DNA from: Bacteriovorax sp. Seq25_V
GTDB lineage: Bacteria > Bdellovibrionota > Bacteriovoracia > Bacteriovoracales > Bacteriovoracaceae
Length of the DNA: 64,000 nucleotides
NCBI RefSeq assembly: GCF_000447795.1
Contig: NZ_AUNI01000015.1
Span: forward strand, 1-64,000
Direction: 5' to 3'
Part shown: positions 36,676-45,017 of the stretch, piece by piece
Position numbering within the stretch: position 1 is the stretch's first letter
Layout: every line of letters begins with the position of its first letter
Translations under genes and position numbers: made by a program
Notes under the pieces: generated by a model
Databases searched by the model: none
The model's input: the letters and a program-made list of their open reading frames with translations, nothing else
What the model was told of the DNA's origin: nothing

Positions 36676-37026
36676 TTACTGAGCTTGTGCTGGAGTTTCT
36701 GTTGCTGGCGCTGCAGGAGCTGCCGTTGGTGCAGGAGCTGCGGCATCAGAATTTAGTGGAGCAGCGATTGGCGCCTCACTATCAAGAAGAGACTTAGACT
36801 CTTTACCTGATTGCATTTTTGCTAGGATTAAACAGTTACCAATAAAGATAATAGTTAAAACAACAGTAATTTTTGAAAGAATATTTCCTTGTTGTGAACC
36901 AGAGAATACAGCATCAGATGCTCCACCCATTAGACCTGCTTCAGCACCTTTTCCAAATTGAAGAAGAACTAGAACAATTAATAATACAGAAATAACTGCG
37001 TGGAAAACCATTAAACTTGTAACCAT
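36676..37026 (-). CDS. secG: SecG translocase subunit
   Basis: 116 residues. Two membrane helices: LMVFHAVISVLLIVLVLLQ and ILSKITVVLTIIFIGNCLIL, separated by GKGAEAGLMGGASDAVFSGSQQG, the SecG signature with conserved GG and Gly-rich turn. SecG assists SecYEG in protein export. The last ~35 residues are an added Ala/Pro/Thr-rich tail (PAPTAAPAAPATETPAQAQ) absent from most SecG proteins. Monocistronic here; in many relatives it follows tpiA, which is elsewhere in this window. Confidence 0.95.
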   Translation of the reverse strand: MVTSLMVFHAVISVLLIVLVLLQFGKGAEAGLMGGASDAVFSGSQQGNILSKITVVLTIIFIGNCLILAKMQSGKESKSLLDSEAPIAAPLNSDAAAPAPTAAPAAPATETPAQAQ

Positions 37027-37248
37027 ATATAATCCTTTAAAAGTTAGACAAATAAAATAAATATCAATAGTTATAACAAAATCAGTACTCGATTACAATA
37101 ACCTCGAGTGTTGCGATGAGCCGAAATTATTATTCATTGAAATATATGTAAAAACAGTAGATTAGCTCATTTCTTTGAATGGATGGCCACACTCAATTCA
37201 TAAAGTCTTTATGTTTACCTATTAGAATCAATATTAAGGGAGGTATTT

Positions 37249-37677
37249 ATGGAATACCACACAAAGAAAAGATTCAACGTGCGACCAAATGAGTTATTTG
37301 AGGACTTTTCCAATTTCGCGAAAATGCAGTCCTGGATGATCAAGGATGACTCGATGAGAACTAATATTAATGCTGATTTTAGCCCAGGTGGAAAATATCA
37401 CTTTGAAATGGTTTCTGATATTGGAGACATCTCACACTATTATGGAGAGTACACATCGATTTATCCAAATCGCCACATTGATATGGTTTGGAATGATGGA
37501 GAGGTTAAAGACACGCTGGTAACTTTGGATTTTGTTGAAAATGAGCGACACGGGACTACGCTCTTGTTGACCCATGCAAATTTGCCGACGGCGATTTCAG
37601 TGAAACATCATAAAGAGTTTTGGAGAAATTGTTTGGAGCACTTGGATGCTTACGTAAAGAAAGTGAATGCGGCTTAA
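37249..37677 (+). CDS. SRPBCC / AHSA1-like (START-fold) protein
   Basis: 142 residues. The AHSA1 pattern is visible: FNVRPNELFEDFSNFAKMQSWM at the start, FSPGGKYHFEM in the middle, GEYTSIYPNRHIDMVWNDGEV, then LTHANLP and a C-terminal helix EFWRNCLEHLDAYV. The START-like fold forms a hydrophobic ligand pocket; ligands differ among members. GGAGG lies 5-6 bases before the ATG. Ligand unknown. Confidence 0.85.
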   Translation: MEYHTKKRFNVRPNELFEDFSNFAKMQSWMIKDDSMRTNINADFSPGGKYHFEMVSDIGDISHYYGEYTSIYPNRHIDMVWNDGEVKDTLVTLDFVENERHGTTLLLTHANLPTAISVKHHKEFWRNCLEHLDAYVKKVNAA

Positions 37678-37734
37678 TCTTACAAATAATGACTCTTACT
37701 AGACGAGGAGGGTACTTCATTAGAACATTAAAGG

Positions 37735-38625
37735 ATGAAAAAAATAATTCCAATGATGTTTTGTATGAGTGCCCTTGCGGGGAATGTAAATCAAGTAAAT
37801 TCTTTCTCTAGAAGTCTTGAGAAGTTGCTTTTAATGGATGCGAGTCATCTCAAGGAAATTGCTCCAAAGATAAGTATAAAGAAGCCAACGGCTTTTCAGC
37901 GTTGGCAGATGGAAAGAACTGGCGCGGAGGCTACTTACAATGATTTTACAAATACTATAGTTTTAAAAGATAGTTACTTTGTTGGTGATCGTATTGTTGG
38001 TATTGATGATATGAAAGCTAATGAAAAGTATCGCTTCTTTGTTTTTGCTTCAACTGCTTTTCACGAACTATCTCACGCTGATTTTGATGTTTCGGTTGAA
38101 AATGGAAGTGGAAGTATTAAGTATCTTCTCGAGCGAAAAATAATGCCGTGGTTTAAGTCGAAATTTCCTTCATTCAATTCTAAAATTGCAACCCACGAGC
38201 TCTTTGGTTATACGGCCGGAGATACAATCTTTAATTTAAATCAAAAGATTCAAGATATTATGATAAATCACGGACTCAAGTACCCTGCAATGGAGTGCTT
38301 CCCGGCCAAGGCTTTAGAAAAAATTGGAGCAAGACTTGGTTTTGAAAATGGGATTGAATTTAAGCCGGTATTCCAAAATCAAGATTTCTCTGACATATTT
38401 GTGCCAGATGCTGTTTTTGTAAAAGGAAAAGATATCAATCTTAAGACAGCAAACTTTCCAAAAGAGTATCGAAAAGAACTTTATGACTATTTTGTTTCAA
38501 CATATGATCTCCCAGTCGATACGGAGGAGTTGATTCATAAAATGAATAATTCACATTTTAAAACCACTTTAGAAGAGTGTTACAAAGATTATGGCAAAGG
38601 TAGTTCGTCACAAGGACGCGAATAG
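37735..38625 (+). CDS. Secreted zincin-like metalloprotease
   Basis: 296 residues. Signal peptide 1-15 (MKKIIPMMFCMSALAG). HExxH zinc motif at 110-114 in FHELSHADFD; a downstream THELFGYTAGD (155) may supply the third Glu ligand. Ser/Lys-rich without long membrane segments. A secreted zinc peptidase is likely but the family is not recognised and the third ligand is inferred. It overlaps the following GNAT gene by 35 bases, so the two are cotranscribed. No activation domain is evident. Confidence 0.6.
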   Translation: MKKIIPMMFCMSALAGNVNQVNSFSRSLEKLLLMDASHLKEIAPKISIKKPTAFQRWQMERTGAEATYNDFTNTIVLKDSYFVGDRIVGIDDMKANEKYRFFVFASTAFHELSHADFDVSVENGSGSIKYLLERKIMPWFKSKFPSFNSKIATHELFGYTAGDTIFNLNQKIQDIMINHGLKYPAMECFPAKALEKIGARLGFENGIEFKPVFQNQDFSDIFVPDAVFVKGKDINLKTANFPKEYRKELYDYFVSTYDLPVDTEELIHKMNNSHFKTTLEECYKDYGKGSSSQGRE

Positions 38626-39430
38626 TTTTTTAAAAATGAGTCAGTCTTTTCTTGAGCAAAATGAGTCCATTAATAATTTGGTTCTAGGTCTCTCTATATC
38701 TTTATCTAAAAGTGAATATGAAGATAACGGTGGTGAATTATTTTATTCAATTATCCACCAAGATGAAGTTGTTGGCTGCGCGATCCGCACAGGTGAAGAA
38801 CGACCTTTTTCCGTTACTCAAATAAAAAAAGAATTTCTTCCTGTCCTGATAAAGAAGCTACGTAGTGATGAAATAAAACTTCAAGGTGTTGTTGGCTTTA
38901 AACAGACAGTAAAAGATTTTGTAAGTTTCTATGGTCATAAAGTAAAGATGAATCTTGATCAGGGACTTTATGAATTATCGCAAGTTACTTTCCCAAAAAA
39001 TGTAAAGGGAAGTGTAAGAGAGGCGACAATGGAAGATCTTGAAGTATGCACGGAACTTCTTCGAGGATTTCTACTAGATTGTTTTGATGATGAAGCCGCT
39101 CCCCATGCAGAAAAAATGATGACTCGAAACCTCAAATACGGAAAAGTCTTTCTATGGATAAGTGAAGAAAATATTCCTGTCGCTATGGCCGCGCGAATTC
39201 GCGAAGGAATTCGAGGCGCGGGAATTTCTCTTGTCTACACTCCTCCAGAAGCAAGAGGGAGAGGATTTGCCAGTGCTGTTGTTGCGAGTCTTTCTCAAGC
39301 CCTACTAAATGACGGATTTGATATTTGCTACTTGCATACCGATCTTTCAAATCCTATCTCGAATTCAATTTATCAAAAAATTGGATATCAAAAGGTTTGT
39401 GAGTTCATTCACTACGATTTCTTAGTTTAA
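38591..39430 (+). CDS. GNAT-family N-acetyltransferase
   Basis: 279 residues. The C-terminal half holds the acetyl-CoA motif: AGISLVYTPPEARGRGFASAVVASLSQ (R/Q-x-x-G-x-G/A as RGRGFA), followed by LHTDLSNPISNSIYQKIGYQKVCE. The N-terminal half is a related but degenerate domain (SISLSKSEYEDN, YSIIHQDEVVGCAIRTGEE). Start is the ATG at 38591, inside the upstream gene; an internal ATG at 38636 has no ribosome site. Substrate unknown. Confidence 0.85.
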   Translation: MAKVVRHKDANSFLKMSQSFLEQNESINNLVLGLSISLSKSEYEDNGGELFYSIIHQDEVVGCAIRTGEERPFSVTQIKKEFLPVLIKKLRSDEIKLQGVVGFKQTVKDFVSFYGHKVKMNLDQGLYELSQVTFPKNVKGSVREATMEDLEVCTELLRGFLLDCFDDEAAPHAEKMMTRNLKYGKVFLWISEENIPVAMAARIREGIRGAGISLVYTPPEARGRGFASAVVASLSQALLNDGFDICYLHTDLSNPISNSIYQKIGYQKVCEFIHYDFLV

Positions 39431-39459
39431 GTTGGCACACAAGATGCATTGTAAAATGC

Positions 39460-40947
39460 ATGTACAAAAAAATACCACTTCTATTCCTCTTGCTTATCAG
39501 CTTGATGACGAGAGCAAATCTCCATATATGTAGTTTTGCTTTCAATTCTACAGATGAGAGAGATGCCTTATTTCAGGAGCTTAAACCTCTTGGGGCGACA
39601 CTGACGGAATTTGTTCCAATAGAATCAAAGGACCCACGCTGGTTTGAGCAAGCATGTAGAAGTGTCAAAAAATGTGACATTACAGTATTTTCTGGACACT
39701 TCGGGGGAGTATTTTTTGGAGAGGGAAGCTCAATTACCTTATCGATGGCGGAGCTACTACAGGCCAAGAAAGACGGTTATTGTTCAAGTGTTTTGACTGA
39801 ATCTAAAACAGTGATGCTTATGGGCTGCAACACAATGGCATCAAAGAAAAAAGATCACAGAAACATTCATGAATATCTAAATGTTTTAATTAATGATGGA
39901 TTTCCTCTTGATCTCGCAGAAAGAGTTGCTGCAACGAGATATCTTAATTATGGAGAAAGTAACGAGGAGATCATGAATTCTATATTCTCTAAGGCTGACA
40001 TAGTGTTGGGGTTTGAAAGCACTGGACCACTTGGCAGATATGCTGGTCCACAGGTTAGAACAGCAATTCGAAAATCTAGTAAAGATAAAAAAATGTCACA
40101 TGGATTTGATGTCAAAGAATTTAAAAAAGCATTTAAAGGAACAAGCTTAAGGGTCTCAACTCCTAAGCTAAGTAACTCTGTTGACTGGAAGGAAAATGCA
40201 CTTACTTTTGATGCTTCTAAAGCAGAGGTTGCTTGGAGAAATATTCTAAGTCAGGAAAATAGAAAAAAATATATCGACTTTATCGTTAGAAATCAAAAAA
40301 ATATGTACTTGAAGCATTTGATTCGATACGACCTCGAGCTACAGGATAGTCTAAAAGGTATAGTCAAAGAAAAATTAAAAATATCAAAAGGTCTTTCTTC
40401 AATACAGCTTGAAATGATCAATTTTCTTCGTACTCATCGACTAGTTACTAAGTATGAATATGATGATTTTTTTGAGGATATTGTAAGCTCTGTCATGCGA
40501 GATGAAATTGATTACGTAAGAGCCGCTCAAATTTGTAAAATTTATAAATCCCATTCATCTGAAATGAAGGATCTAGAGGAAAGAGGAATCATAGCTGATG
40601 TCACAGGTCTATACTCGAACTATATAAATTCTTGTAAAGATCTAAAAAGCCAAAAACTAAAACCAGTCATGAGTACTCTTAGTTCATGTTTGGCCACTAA
40701 AAGTAAAAGTGATTGGAGTTGTTTAACATCCAATCAAGCTCAGTTAGATGTTAATTCCTGTCTGATCGCGGCAAGTCGAAATACAGATGTTGAAAATGCT
40801 GATGATATGCTTTGGTACTGTTACTCAAAAATGAGAGTCCGAGCTCAATTAAATAGAGCTCAGTGTTTACAACTTACAGATAATTTTAAAATTCTTGGAA
40901 ATAAATTGAAAATGAATTGGAATTGCTTAAATAGAATTAAATATTAG
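39460..40947 (+). CDS. Secreted caspase-like (clan CD) protein
   Basis: 495 residues. Signal peptide to ~19 (LLFLLLISLMTRA). In the N-terminal domain, DITVFSGHFGGVFFG (His80) and KTVMLMGCNTMASK (Cys123) match the CHAT/caspase pattern of a beta strand ending in SGH followed ~40 residues later by a strand ending in xCN. The rest (~200-495) is helical with paired Cys, e.g. SSCLATK, DWSCLTS, VNSCLIAA, LWYCYSKM, AQCLQL and NWNCLN. AGGAG is near the stop of the next gene start, 8 bases on. A secreted cysteine protease, possibly for prey, is inferred; no activity is shown. Confidence 0.6.
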   Translation: MYKKIPLLFLLLISLMTRANLHICSFAFNSTDERDALFQELKPLGATLTEFVPIESKDPRWFEQACRSVKKCDITVFSGHFGGVFFGEGSSITLSMAELLQAKKDGYCSSVLTESKTVMLMGCNTMASKKKDHRNIHEYLNVLINDGFPLDLAERVAATRYLNYGESNEEIMNSIFSKADIVLGFESTGPLGRYAGPQVRTAIRKSSKDKKMSHGFDVKEFKKAFKGTSLRVSTPKLSNSVDWKENALTFDASKAEVAWRNILSQENRKKYIDFIVRNQKNMYLKHLIRYDLELQDSLKGIVKEKLKISKGLSSIQLEMINFLRTHRLVTKYEYDDFFEDIVSSVMRDEIDYVRAAQICKIYKSHSSEMKDLEERGIIADVTGLYSNYINSCKDLKSQKLKPVMSTLSSCLATKSKSDWSCLTSNQAQLDVNSCLIAASRNTDVENADDMLWYCYSKMRVRAQLNRAQCLQLTDNFKILGNKLKMNWNCLNRIKY

Positions 40948-40955
40948 GAGAAGTT

Positions 40956-41576
40956 ATGAAAAAATCAATTTTAATCGCCATGTTGATCTGTACTAATAGC
41001 TATGCAGAAGGACTCTTTGCTGATGGATTTCAACCTTCAAACTTAGGTGAGGCCATTCAACACGTAGGGAGCCGTATTAGAAGTGCTCATAGTGGCGGAG
41101 GAAAGGTTGACCTCTCAGCACTTGAGAAAATGACAGATGAACAAAGAGATAAGGCCTTCATGTACCATGAAGACAATCCAAAGCGTCGTGAAAATGATCC
41201 TCGCCGTGAAACCGTGAGGATGCTTGAAGAGTTTAAAGAAGATGTTATTGCAAAGTATGAAGAGTCTGATCGTCGTGAAGAAATTTTAAATGAAGTTTCA
41301 GATAGCGTTAAAACATATAATAGAAGAATTGAAGGCGGCTACTATCGTTATGCTTACGAGAGAATTGATAGTTGTTTAAATGAGTGTTACCACGAAACTG
41401 AATCACTTGGAATTACTTGTTATGAAAATGACCTTGATAGAAGAGTAGGTTGTAATGACATGGCCTCATGGAACCCTCAAAGACTTCTATGTAAGTATGA
41501 AAGTTCAAAAGAATATGACAAGTGTCGCGATGATGCAGGTTGGGCATATCAGGTTTGCCAGTCAAAGTGTTTCTAA
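40956..41576 (+). CDS. Secreted Cys-rich protein of unknown function
   Basis: 206 residues. Signal peptide (KKSILIAMLICTNSYA). A charged helical middle (RRENDPRRETVRMLEEFKEDVIAKYEESDRREEI) leads to a Cys-rich C-terminal ~80 residues (DSCLNECYHETESLGITC, GCNDMASW, LCKYESSKEYDKCR, VCQSKCF). It starts 8 bases after the caspase-like gene with AGGAGAAG before the ATG, so they are almost surely cotranscribed and may act together. No family recognised. Confidence 0.6.
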   Translation: MKKSILIAMLICTNSYAEGLFADGFQPSNLGEAIQHVGSRIRSAHSGGGKVDLSALEKMTDEQRDKAFMYHEDNPKRRENDPRRETVRMLEEFKEDVIAKYEESDRREEILNEVSDSVKTYNRRIEGGYYRYAYERIDSCLNECYHETESLGITCYENDLDRRVGCNDMASWNPQRLLCKYESSKEYDKCRDDAGWAYQVCQSKCF

Positions 41577-41589
41577 TCTAAGAAAATAT

Positions 41590-41622
41590 ACGAGCACATG
41601 ATAATTTCATGTGCTTTTCCTT
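41590..41622. terminator. Bidirectional terminator, Cys-rich gene / ppc
   Basis: AGCACATGA (41593-41601) pairs perfectly with TCATGTGCT (41607-41615), 5-nt loop, then TTTTCCTTTTA on the plus strand. It lies 16 bp after the plus-strand stop and 7 bp after the ppc stop. Confidence 0.85.
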
Positions 41623-43941
41623 TTATCCTGTCGTCATCATTCCACACGCAATCGCAGTCACAGTTTCTCTTAATAACTGATAATCTTTATTTTTCAAGGC
41701 CCTTATTTGTAATAGGTTGATTGGATGAATCATACGAGAGCGAAGCTGAATACTCTCGCCAAGCCAAGGTCTAAAGAAGAGTAGGTCTCTTTGTCCAGAA
41801 ACTTCAATGAAAAACTTTTTAGCAAGCATTAGTTCATTTTCGACGATCTGATAAACTTCATCGGCGTGCGATCTATCCATGAACTCATTAAGATAGGCCT
41901 TGAAAACCTCTATTTCAATCTTTGCTAAACTAAAACCAAGAGTGTTGATAAATGATCTTAGATAATCTGAGCTTTGATAAGAGTCTTTGATGACTTTCTT
42001 TGAGCTCACATCGATATCTCTCCAAGCTGTTCCAACCCCAAACCAATTTGGGAGTAAGCCTCTCGTTTGTGTCCAGCAAAGGATCCATGGAATCGCTCGA
42101 AGTTTTAATTCAGTTGAAGTTGTCTTCTGTCTCTTTGATGGTCTTGATCCAATTTTTAAGTGATCAAGGTAGAGATAGGGAGTCGCAGCCTTAATAGCGT
42201 GAACAAACTTATCATTATCAAAAAGGTTCTTATAAACTGCTGTTGATAGCTTTGCCATTTCATCCATCGTTGAAATAAACTTTGCATCCATTTTCTGATT
42301 TTTAATTTCATTAAGTTCAGTAGTTATTTTTGCGACCTGACTTTGAAGAATTAGGGAATCCCCAAAAGTACGAGCAACCATCTCACCTTGAATAGTAACT
42401 TTATATATATTTAGCGCACTTTTAGGCCACCAACGAATCTGTTCTTTTAGTGATCCTCCTCCACGAGCAATACTTCCCCCTGAACCGTGAAAGAAAACTG
42501 GCGTTAACTTCTTTGCCAGCAAATTTTCATCAATGGCATTAATTGCCTTCGCAATAAGCCATTTCCCAGAAAATACTCCACTTTCTTTTGAAGAGTCTGA
42601 ATAGCCAAGCATAACTTCAAAGCGAGAGTGCCACTTGTTTTGATGATGTTTTAGTAGTGTCGGGTTTTTCTTAAAAACTTCATTTAGAATGTTGTGGGCA
42701 TTCGAAAGAGCTTTCTGTGTTTCAAACAGGGGAACTACAGGAATATAAAGTTCCTTCAGCGCTTTCTTAACGAGGTCTAGCCCTGCTTGATAATCAGAGG
42801 CCTCTTCGCACATACTAAGAATAAAGCCACGCACATACCACTTACTTCTCTCGCCAATTGAAATCTCTTGTAGGTACTTGAGCATTTTATAGATTTCAAA
42901 ATTTTTATCTTTGAGTGCCTCATGAACAAGAGAAGAGTCCTCACGAACTTCCAGAGGTAGGACAAGAGTCGGGTAGAGCCAAACAATACTTTTAATTTTT
43001 TCCAGATATGGTGATTGGTTTTTAATTTCTTTTTCAAAGAGTTTGCAATACTTAGAAAAACTATCTTTTAAAAGAGCTATCCTTCTTCCGTCAAGCTTCT
43101 TGATCTCTTTAACACTTGCAAAGAGCTTCACAAGTTTTTGTGATTCTTTTTCAAGCGCCTTGAGCGGAAGATCAGTCTGTTTTAAAAGCTTGAGATGTTT
43201 ATTATAGTGAGAAGAAACATAGCGAAGTAGAATGTCCCTTGAAAGCTGTAGAGAGTCTCTCATCGTCTGGTGATTAACAAAAGGGTGACCATCTTTATCT
43301 CCACCAACCCAACTTCTAAAATGTACTGTAATTCCTCGTTGTTGCATTTTAACTTGCAGATCCAGAATTTTCTTATCTAAAACGATATTGTAAATATGTG
43401 AGGCCTCATCAAATACCGTCGGTTTCTTCGTCGACGCCATTGACGAGCGAAGAATAAGATTAAGATGAAATTTAAGTTCTGAAATAAACGTATCTTCAAT
43501 CCCTTCTAAAAAGGCGATAAGTAGTGCTTCTGTCGAATTAAATAACTTCATCAGCTTTTCTGAGCGTGCTTCCGTTGGGTGAGCAGTAAAAACATAGATG
43601 ATTGCATAGGGAGAGCTCTGTAGCTCTTTTTTACGTTTGTCGCTTGCTAGGCGATGGTGACGGTAAGCATTTTCAGCACGGTTTACTAGTTCGAGATAGA
43701 CACCATAAGCATGGCAAAGATTAATCGCCTCAGCGTCACTTAGTTTATAAATCTTTTTTAAGCTTTCTTGGAGATGTACACTTTTTTCTTTTGATGTTGA
43801 GGCTAGATTATTCTTGAATTCGACTCGAAGCTTTTCAACGAGGGTGTAGATTTTGTTACCGTAGACATTTCTAATTTCTTCACCAAGTGAAGCACCGATT
43901 ATTTTGACAAGATCTTTTAGTTCCTGAGGAAGGTTTTGCAC
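41623..43941 (-). CDS. ppc: Phosphoenolpyruvate carboxylase-like protein, divergent
   Basis: 772 residues, shorter than the usual ~880-970. Conserved blocks: FTAHPTEARSEK (His121), WVGGDKDGHPFV, MLGYSDSSKESGVF, GSRPSKRQ, RAIPWILCWTQTRGLLPNWFG, and K and R residues corresponding to E. coli Lys773 (SLAKIEIEVF) and Arg832 (IQLRSRMIHP). The glycine loop reads FHGSGGSIARGGG, so the first Arg (E. coli Arg587) is Ser487. The C-terminus reads GMMTTG instead of GMRNTG, losing Asn881. PEPC makes oxaloacetate from PEP and bicarbonate. Activity and aspartate control may be altered. Confidence 0.85.
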   Translation of the reverse strand: MQNLPQELKDLVKIIGASLGEEIRNVYGNKIYTLVEKLRVEFKNNLASTSKEKSVHLQESLKKIYKLSDAEAINLCHAYGVYLELVNRAENAYRHHRLASDKRKKELQSSPYAIIYVFTAHPTEARSEKLMKLFNSTEALLIAFLEGIEDTFISELKFHLNLILRSSMASTKKPTVFDEASHIYNIVLDKKILDLQVKMQQRGITVHFRSWVGGDKDGHPFVNHQTMRDSLQLSRDILLRYVSSHYNKHLKLLKQTDLPLKALEKESQKLVKLFASVKEIKKLDGRRIALLKDSFSKYCKLFEKEIKNQSPYLEKIKSIVWLYPTLVLPLEVREDSSLVHEALKDKNFEIYKMLKYLQEISIGERSKWYVRGFILSMCEEASDYQAGLDLVKKALKELYIPVVPLFETQKALSNAHNILNEVFKKNPTLLKHHQNKWHSRFEVMLGYSDSSKESGVFSGKWLIAKAINAIDENLLAKKLTPVFFHGSGGSIARGGGSLKEQIRWWPKSALNIYKVTIQGEMVARTFGDSLILQSQVAKITTELNEIKNQKMDAKFISTMDEMAKLSTAVYKNLFDNDKFVHAIKAATPYLYLDHLKIGSRPSKRQKTTSTELKLRAIPWILCWTQTRGLLPNWFGVGTAWRDIDVSSKKVIKDSYQSSDYLRSFINTLGFSLAKIEIEVFKAYLNEFMDRSHADEVYQIVENELMLAKKFFIEVSGQRDLLFFRPWLGESIQLRSRMIHPINLLQIRALKNKDYQLLRETVTAIACGMMTTG

Positions 43942-44005
43942 ATAAACTCCATAAATAGATTTAAGCTATTTTACGAAGTTTATTGCAATTTAGTTAGGGG
44001 GAAAT

Positions 44006-44302
44006 TTATTTAAAACGATCTTTTTTCCAGACCATAAGCTGATCTTGAATTTGTTGATCAAGCATTCGATAAAGTGATTGAATGTCAGATCCAGTTCCAT
44101 CGGCAGCAAAACTCTTAATTGAGCTTTGCACTTCGATTAAACCAGTAAATCCTTCATCTTCTTTAGAAAATTTAAGATTGATGAGTGAATCAATCGGACA
44201 TAGTTGGAAAAGATCGTTGATGAGACGATTAATATGTCCCATTTCACTTGGTACTAGATCAAAGCCAATAGCTTCAACAGTAATGCCTTCGTTATTTTCC
44301 AT
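44006..44302 (-). CDS. Small protein, possibly HPF/RaiA-like ribosome-associated
   Basis: 98 residues. The layout beta-alpha-beta-beta-beta-alpha, with an N-terminal VEAIGFDLVPSEMGHINRLINDLF, strands INLKFSKED and LIEVQSSIKSFAADG, and a C-terminal helix DIQSLYRMLDQQIQDQLMVWKKDRF, resembles HPF/RaiA hibernation factors, where the final helix carries the AID...K..RQ.. pattern. The match is by eye. It overlaps the tpiA stop by 11 bases and is cotranscribed with the glycolytic genes. If HPF-like it would dimerise or inactivate ribosomes in non-growing cells. Confidence 0.4.
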   Translation of the reverse strand: MENNEGITVEAIGFDLVPSEMGHINRLINDLFQLCPIDSLINLKFSKEDEGFTGLIEVQSSIKSFAADGTGSDIQSLYRMLDQQIQDQLMVWKKDRFK

Positions 44303-45017
44303 ATAATCCCATGAAACTCTCAGCTTTTAGAGATGCTCCACCAACAAGTCCACCGTCGATATCAGCACAAGAGAATAATTCTTTGGCATTATCTGGTTTA
44401 ACACTTCCACCATAAAGGATAAGTGTTTCTTCTGCATTAAGTTCTGTTTCTTCTTTTAGGAATTTTCTTACGAACTCATGAGTTTCTTGTGCTTGCGCTG
44501 GAGTAGCTGTTACTCCAGTTCCAATTGCCCAAACTGGCTCATAAGCAACAATGACATCAGAAGATGAAACACCTTGAAGACCTTTTTTTAATTGTTCCCC
44601 AAGAACAGCTTCAATTTTTCCTGATTCTCTCTCTTCAAGAGTTTCACCAATACAGAAGATTACTTTGAGATTATTTACGAGGGCCTTTTTAACTTTTAAA
44701 TTAAGTTCCTCGTGAGTTTCTTTAAAGATTGCTCTTCTTTCACTGTGACCTAGGATAACGAATTCGCAGCCTAGCTCTTTTAATGAAGTAGGAGATACTT
44801 CTCCCGTAAATGCTCCTGAGTTTTCATATGAACAATTTTGAGCACCAGTCTTGAAATTCTTTGGAGCTAATTCAATCAATTTTGAAAGGTGTAGTGCTTG
44901 AGGAGCAATCCACGCTTCATCAGTGAAGTTTGATGCTTTTACAGTAGTAAAGAAAGCTTCGATGTCACCAAGTGACTGATTCATTTTCCAATTTCCAACG
45001 ACTAGTGTTTTTCTCAT
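44292..45017 (-). CDS. tpiA: Triosephosphate isomerase
   Basis: 241 residues. Catalytic Lys in VGNWKMNQ, His in ILGHSERRA, Glu in VAYEPVWAIGTG, plus the phosphate-binding YGGSVKPDN. It interconverts dihydroxyacetone phosphate and glyceraldehyde 3-phosphate. It follows pgk after 2 bases, in one operon with gap and pgk, and overlaps the next small gene by 11 bases. Confidence 0.97.
   Translation of the reverse strand: MRKTLVVGNWKMNQSLGDIEAFFTTVKASNFTDEAWIAPQALHLSKLIELAPKNFKTGAQNCSYENSGAFTGEVSPTSLKELGCEFVILGHSERRAIFKETHEELNLKVKKALVNNLKVIFCIGETLEERESGKIEAVLGEQLKKGLQGVSSSDVIVAYEPVWAIGTGVTATPAQAQETHEFVRKFLKEETELNAEETLILYGGSVKPDNAKELFSCADIDGGLVGGASLKAESFMGLYGK

What the first reader, a model, noticed from the sequence alone, without database searches (positions are those of the whole stretch)
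39460..40947. Secreted caspase/CHAT-like candidate in a predator
The His80/Cys123 spacing and flanking strands fit clan-CD cysteine proteases, and the protein has a Sec signal and a Cys-rich helical C-terminal half. Such secreted caspase-like enzymes are not a standard part of bacterial predation models. The following small Cys-rich secreted gene, 8 bases away, could be its inhibitor, activator or partner. This is the best candidate for an undescribed pair in the window.
Basis: partly seen in the sequence, partly recalled or inferred. Interest (0 to 1): 0.65.

Follow-up and report, generated by a model that had tools for sequence, protein, structure and literature searches.

The report
Exported caspase-fold enzyme, unnamed family
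The gene encodes an exported cysteine protease-like enzyme with the caspase fold, from a widespread family that Pfam and NCBIfam do not recognise and that is common in Bdellovibrio relatives; the neighbouring small gene is not its partner but an independent resident of the same spot.

Summary
The ORF (39460-40947, 495 aa) is real and carries His80 and Cys123 as stated. The fold call is right: a 63-sequence AlphaFold2 model (pLDDT 93.6, pTM 0.89) has the caspase strand order, with His on the loop after strand 3 and Cys on the loop after strand 4. Of the top 50 structural matches, 49 are CHAT, C11, legumain, caspase or metacaspase (Z 9.0-11.9). In 127 relatives His is kept in 126/127 and Cys in 126/126. 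Two further cysteine pairs (24-72, 66-108) are kept or lost together, which indicates two disulfides and, with the signal peptide, an exported enzyme. The family occurs in 94 of 369 phylum genomes, in 17 of 24 Bdellovibrio genomes, and in Burkholderiales as tandem pairs. No Pfam or NCBIfam model recognises the window protein. The "pair" idea fails: the small Cys-rich gene sits at the same secG-tpi spot in a same-genus genome without the protease, and no protease relative examined has it. Catalysis, specificity and any role in predation are inferred, not shown; occurrence in Burkholderiales argues against a predation-only role.

The parts
39460..40947 (+). ORF of the caspase-fold exported enzyme (495 aa)
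   Evidence: relatives
39460..39516 (+). predicted Sec signal peptide, residues 1-19 (cleavage inferred after TRA)
   Evidence: sequence; family-wide hydrophobic N-terminus
39517..40170 (+). caspase-fold catalytic domain, residues 20-237 (strands 22-27, 47-50, 74-78, 117-121, 181-185, 230-233)
   Evidence: model; structural matches
39697..39699 (+). His80 codon, predicted catalytic His on the loop after strand 3
   Evidence: 126/127 conserved
39826..39828 (+). Cys123 codon, predicted nucleophile on the loop after strand 4
   Evidence: 126/126 conserved
39529..39531 (+). Cys24, inferred disulfide with Cys72
   Evidence: 124 both / 3 neither / 0 discordant
39673..39675 (+). Cys72, inferred disulfide with Cys24
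39655..39657 (+). Cys66, inferred disulfide with Cys108
   Evidence: 110 both / 12 neither / 2 discordant
39781..39783 (+). Cys108, inferred disulfide with Cys66
40171..40533 (+). helical companion region, residues 238-358, homologous to the helical region of the rest of the family
   Evidence: hhalign 96% probability, E 1.5e-9; helical in model
40534..40944 (+). Cys-rich helical tail, residues 359-495, 8 Cys invariant in 7 aligned clade members
40956..41576 (+). neighbouring small Cys-rich secreted ORF; considered as partner and rejected
41592..41616 (+). terminator-like hairpin after the small ORF; none found between the two genes, so co-transcription is possible
   Evidence: pattern match only

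Best explanation
The protein is a Sec-exported, disulfide-stabilised cysteine endopeptidase of the caspase-hemoglobinase fold (clan CD), in a family that no Pfam or NCBIfam model recognises. After signal cleavage the N-terminal domain is held by two disulfides (24-72, 66-108). His80 on the loop after strand 3 activates Cys123 on the loop after strand 4, and Cys123 attacks a peptide bond. The helical C-terminal region, conserved across the family and in this clade ending in a Cys-rich tail, most likely governs substrate access or binding. It acts in the periplasm or outside the cell. Shown: sequence, conservation, homology of the helical region. Predicted: fold, export. Inferred: disulfides, catalysis, the role of the tail and the site of action. 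The substrate and any role in predation are unknown.
For: Domain model pLDDT 93.6, pTM 0.89, six-strand caspase order. VIA-align: SAVED-CHAT Z 11.9 (rmsd 3.3, 162 aligned), iotapain C11 Z 11.1 (3.6, 171), legumain Z 10.5 (3.3, 168), procaspase-6 Z 10.0 (3.7, 165); 49 of 50 rows are clan CD or CHAT. The full-length model agrees: SAVED-CHAT Z 12.0. Foldseek's best hits for the domain are caspase-6 zymogen (E 1.2e-3, prob 0.99) and caspase-3. The family profile against PDB: 9 of 11 weak hits are caspases, and in the best one His and Cys are in register. His 126/127, Cys 126/126, including 19 divergent members found without a motif filter. Cys pair co-retention, Fisher p 3e-6 and 6e-15, rows not phylogenetically independent. 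Helical region homologous across the family.
Against: No sequence-profile match to any clan CD family: Pfam and NCBIfam none, hhalign to small C14, CHAT and C11 alignments not significant, best PDB profile hit only E 0.036. Foldseek alone is not decisive: Rossmann-like proteins follow at E 4.5e-3. Model coordinates could not be measured, so the His-Cys distance is untested. No substrate pocket was identified. One natural His-to-Glu member exists (L099/L025).
Confidence: 0.74

Rival explanations
1. Caspase fold but not a protease: a transferase/ligase (as some legumains) or a binding protein that keeps the dyad for another reaction.
For: Several top structural matches are legumain-type enzymes including peptide ligases; a natural His-to-Glu copy exists beside an intact paralogue in G033.
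Against: His and Cys are otherwise near invariant, as expected for a hydrolase; clan CD members with an intact dyad are usually peptidases (established knowledge).
Confidence: 0.14
2. A prey-directed enzyme: exported into the prey periplasm to digest or disable prey proteins during predation. This is a narrower version of the best explanation, not exclusive with it.
For: Host falls in a Bacteriovoracaceae-like family; 17 of 24 Bdellovibrio genomes carry the family; exported; B. bacteriovorus upregulates predicted secreted proteases during prey exit (PMC12546842).
Against: Absent in 5 other genomes of the same genus and in 7 of 24 Bdellovibrio genomes; present as tandem pairs in Burkholderiales such as Ramlibacter and Piscinibacter, not known as obligate predators (the lifestyle is from general knowledge); the two papers read do not name a caspase-like enzyme.
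Confidence: 0.25
3. Dedicated pair: the small Cys-rich gene 8 bases downstream is the inhibitor, activator or substrate of the enzyme.
For: 8-base spacing, same strand, both with signal-like N-termini and Cys-rich, no terminator-like site between them.
Against: Relatives of the small gene occur only in G001 and G004, which lack the protease; none near any protease relative examined; in G001 it occupies the same secG-tpi spot without the protease.
Confidence: 0.04
4. Self-directed protease for envelope quality control or cell death of its own cell.
For: Caspase homologues in bacteria are often discussed in connection with stress or cell death (PMC3501461).
Against: Predicted to be exported, no recurrent neighbours of any kind, no PADLOC match; patchy distribution.
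Confidence: 0.12

Closest known systems
SAVED-CHAT protease (PDB 8tl0)
   Same: Best structural match of the domain (Z 11.9-12.0); His/Cys dyad fold
   Different: Not matched by the CHAT Pfam model; this protein is predicted to be exported and disulfide-bonded and has no SAVED sensor
C11 clostripain family, e.g. iotapain (6nag) and clostripain (9cip)
   Same: Secreted bacterial clan CD cysteine proteases; Z 11.1 and 9.5
   Different: No PF03415 match; hhalign not significant; C-terminal helical region shared with its own family only
C13 legumain / asparaginyl endopeptidase
   Same: Caspase fold; Z about 10.5; extracytoplasmic, with a helical C-terminal part
   Different: No sequence match; solved examples are eukaryotic; specificity residues not established here
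C14 caspases, metacaspases, bacterial orthocaspases
   Same: Strand order and dyad placement; Foldseek best hit is caspase-6 zymogen; weak PDB profile hits are nearly all caspases
   Different: No PF00656 match; Cys motif GCNT rather than the QAC of caspases; two conserved extra Cys pairs

Membership tests
Clan CD (caspase-hemoglobinase fold) | six-stranded sheet with catalytic His on the loop after strand 3 and Cys on the loop after strand 4 (as described in PMC4357240) | tested here: met
   AF2 domain model places His80 after strand 74-78 and Cys123 after strand 117-121; 49 of 50 structural rows clan CD/CHAT. A predicted, not solved, structure
Clan CD (caspase-hemoglobinase fold) | conserved His/Cys dyad | tested here: met
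   His 126/127, Cys 126/126
Clan CD (caspase-hemoglobinase fold) | cysteine peptidase activity | not testable with these tools
   needs purified protein
C14 (PF00656) | match to the family's sequence profile | tested here: not met
   no match at E 10; own genome has none
C14 (PF00656) | P1 Asp or Arg/Lys pocket residues | not tested
   model coordinates and residue mapping not available
CHAT (PF12770) | match to the family's sequence profile | tested here: not met
   own genome none; hhalign to a two-sequence CHAT alignment not significant
CHAT (PF12770) | fold similarity to a solved CHAT protease | tested here: met
   8tl0 Z 11.9, rmsd 3.3, 162 aligned
C11 clostripain (PF03415) | match to the family's sequence profile | tested here: not met
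   hhalign not significant
C11 clostripain (PF03415) | secreted, self-processing enzyme | tested here: inconclusive
   export signal present; self-processing not testable here
C13 legumain | fold similarity | tested here: met
   Z 10.5, rmsd 3.2-3.4
C13 legumain | sequence profile match | tested here: not met
   no Pfam family at E 10 for the full protein

The most novel reading that the evidence does not exclude
A separate clan CD peptidase family that evolved for the extracytoplasmic space, with two conserved disulfides and a helical regulatory region, and that many Bdellovibrio-type predators use inside the prey.
Probability: 0.2. Interest if true: 0.72.

Novelty: new variant of a known kind. 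Interest (0 to 1): 0.5.

Why it matters
It adds to clan CD a widespread bacterial group that Pfam and NCBIfam do not recognise, so it is likely to be annotated as hypothetical. It gives concrete, mutable residues (His80, Cys123, two Cys pairs) and shows that most Bdellovibrio genomes encode a likely exported cysteine protease, whereas the exported proteases described in the review read here are mainly serine enzymes.

Tried and rejected
Dedicated pair with 40956-41576: rejected on distribution and synteny. Conserved operon: clustering of neighbours in about 88 loci gave no recurrent neighbour next to the gene (the largest clusters are spurious or at scattered distances); only local synteny (L016 with L036; L040 with L056 and L057). 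Foreign base composition: GC of the gene 0.349 against 0.364 for the window, no signal. Membership of C14, CHAT or C11 by sequence: not met. NCBIfam, PADLOC: none. Foldseek on the full model: no significant match, with helical repeat proteins prominent in the list; hence the domain-only model. Promoter scan: 16 sites against 15.8 expected, no information. Literature: no paper held has both 'Bdellovibrio' and 'clostripain'; the two with 'caspase-like' are about other subjects.

Full report
Observation. It has a plausible Sec signal, a helical C-terminal half and 8 Cys in residues 359-489. The next ORF (40956-41576) starts after 8 intervening bases.

Family. A protein search of 97 related genomes (own included) found the gene in 8, none of them the 5 other genomes of the same genus. 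A profile search found the domain in 94 of 369 genomes of the phylum and 47 of 182 genera, and in 17 of 24 genomes of the genus that contains B. bacteriovorus kdesi (G177 identified by matching size and coordinates with L041). A scan of GTDB species genomes found 128 relatives, of which the 80 kept are in Bdellovibrionota, a few MAGs labelled Deltaproteobacteria, and Burkholderiales. In the Burkholderiales most loci hold two adjacent copies, which fall largely into two clades in the tree, so the duplication looks old (quick tree only). The window protein lies in a clade of 8 with support 99, close to a group that holds the kdesi protein.

Catalytic residues. Over 127 rows His80 is His in 126 and Cys123 is Cys in 126 of 126. 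The species scan was seeded with motifs that contain these residues, so its rows are biased. The BLAST and profile finds are not seeded in that way: 14 domain rows (His 13, Cys 14) and 19 divergent rows (His in all, Cys in all 18 that cover it). The one exception is His to Glu in L025/L099, whose genome also has an intact copy.

Fold. The domain model with 63 sequences has pLDDT 93.6 and pTM 0.89 and shows the caspase order of six strands, with the dyad on the loops after strands 3 and 4, as in the clan CD review (PMC4357240). VIA-align rows are almost all clan CD or CHAT, Z 9.0-11.9 over 150-175 residues. Foldseek alone gives caspase-6 zymogen first, at E 1.2e-3, with Rossmann-like folds not far behind. 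Sequence profiles give only a hint: weak PDB hits that are nearly all caspases, the best with His and Cys in register. Pfam, NCBIfam and hhalign to C14, CHAT and C11 do not match. So it looks and probably works like a clan CD enzyme but is not a sequence member of the families tested.

Export and disulfides. Cys24 and Cys72 are both present in 124 rows, both absent in 3, never discordant. Cys66 and Cys108 are both present in 110, both absent in 12, discordant in 2. No other pairing of these four shows association. The rows are related, so the p-values overstate the case. The loss of 66 and 108 recurs in separate branches (L112/L114, and several of L120-L133); the loss of 24 and 72 is one branch (L029, L123). 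This fits two disulfides and an exported protein, and leaves Cys123 free.

Helical region. The region after the domain is homologous across the family (hhalign 96.3%, E 1.5e-9). Other branches carry HEAT repeats or, in L029 and L123, a WD40 propeller. In this clade it ends in a tail with 8 Cys that are invariant in 7 aligned members. A role in substrate access is inference.

The neighbour. The small gene has relatives only in G001 and G004, of the same genus, both without the protease. In G001 it lies between tpi and secG, the same interval as in the window, with no protease. In G002, G003 and G005 that interval holds other genes, so it is a variable spot. All 8 Cys of its mature part are conserved in the three sequences, so it is a real gene, but not a partner conserved with the enzyme.

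What is known. Secreted bacterial caspase homologues have been inferred before (PMC3501461), and secreted C11 proteases are solved (titles). Neither the Bdellovibrio predation proteome paper (PMC12546842, main text only) nor the review of its secreted enzymes (PMC7174725) mentions a caspase or cysteine protease. The own genome has no C14, CHAT or C11 match. I therefore rate it a new variant of a known kind. That the host is a predator rests on its placement near Bacteriovoracaceae and was not tested.

Noticed in passing
window 36676-45017 (secG to tpi): In this genus the interval between secG and tpi holds different genes in most of the five genomes compared, so it looks like a variable insertion spot.
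   Followed up: partly
window 37735-38625: A 296-aa protein with a signal-like N-terminus and an HExxH motif (FHELSHAD), no Pfam family; relatives only in G019 and G007 of 57 other genomes searched.
   Followed up: partly
window 39444-39461: Inverted repeat ATGCATTGTAAAATGCAT overlapping the start codon of the enzyme gene; the only ATGCAT pair with 3-8 bases between in the window.
   Followed up: no
L079-L114, e.g. L108:5875-9333: Burkholderiales carry two adjacent copies of the family gene, with His and Cys intact in both, falling largely into two clades.
   Followed up: partly
L025/L099 (G033:C47): A family member with His changed to Glu, in a genome that also has an intact copy.
   Followed up: no
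L029:7872-10085 and L123: Family members whose C-terminal region is a WD40-type propeller, and that have lost Cys24 and Cys72.
   Followed up: no
window 40956-41576: The small Cys-rich secreted protein has a strikingly conserved N-terminal stretch (GLFADGFQPSNLGEAI-HVGSRIRSAHSGG) in three species, more conserved than its middle part.
   Followed up: partly
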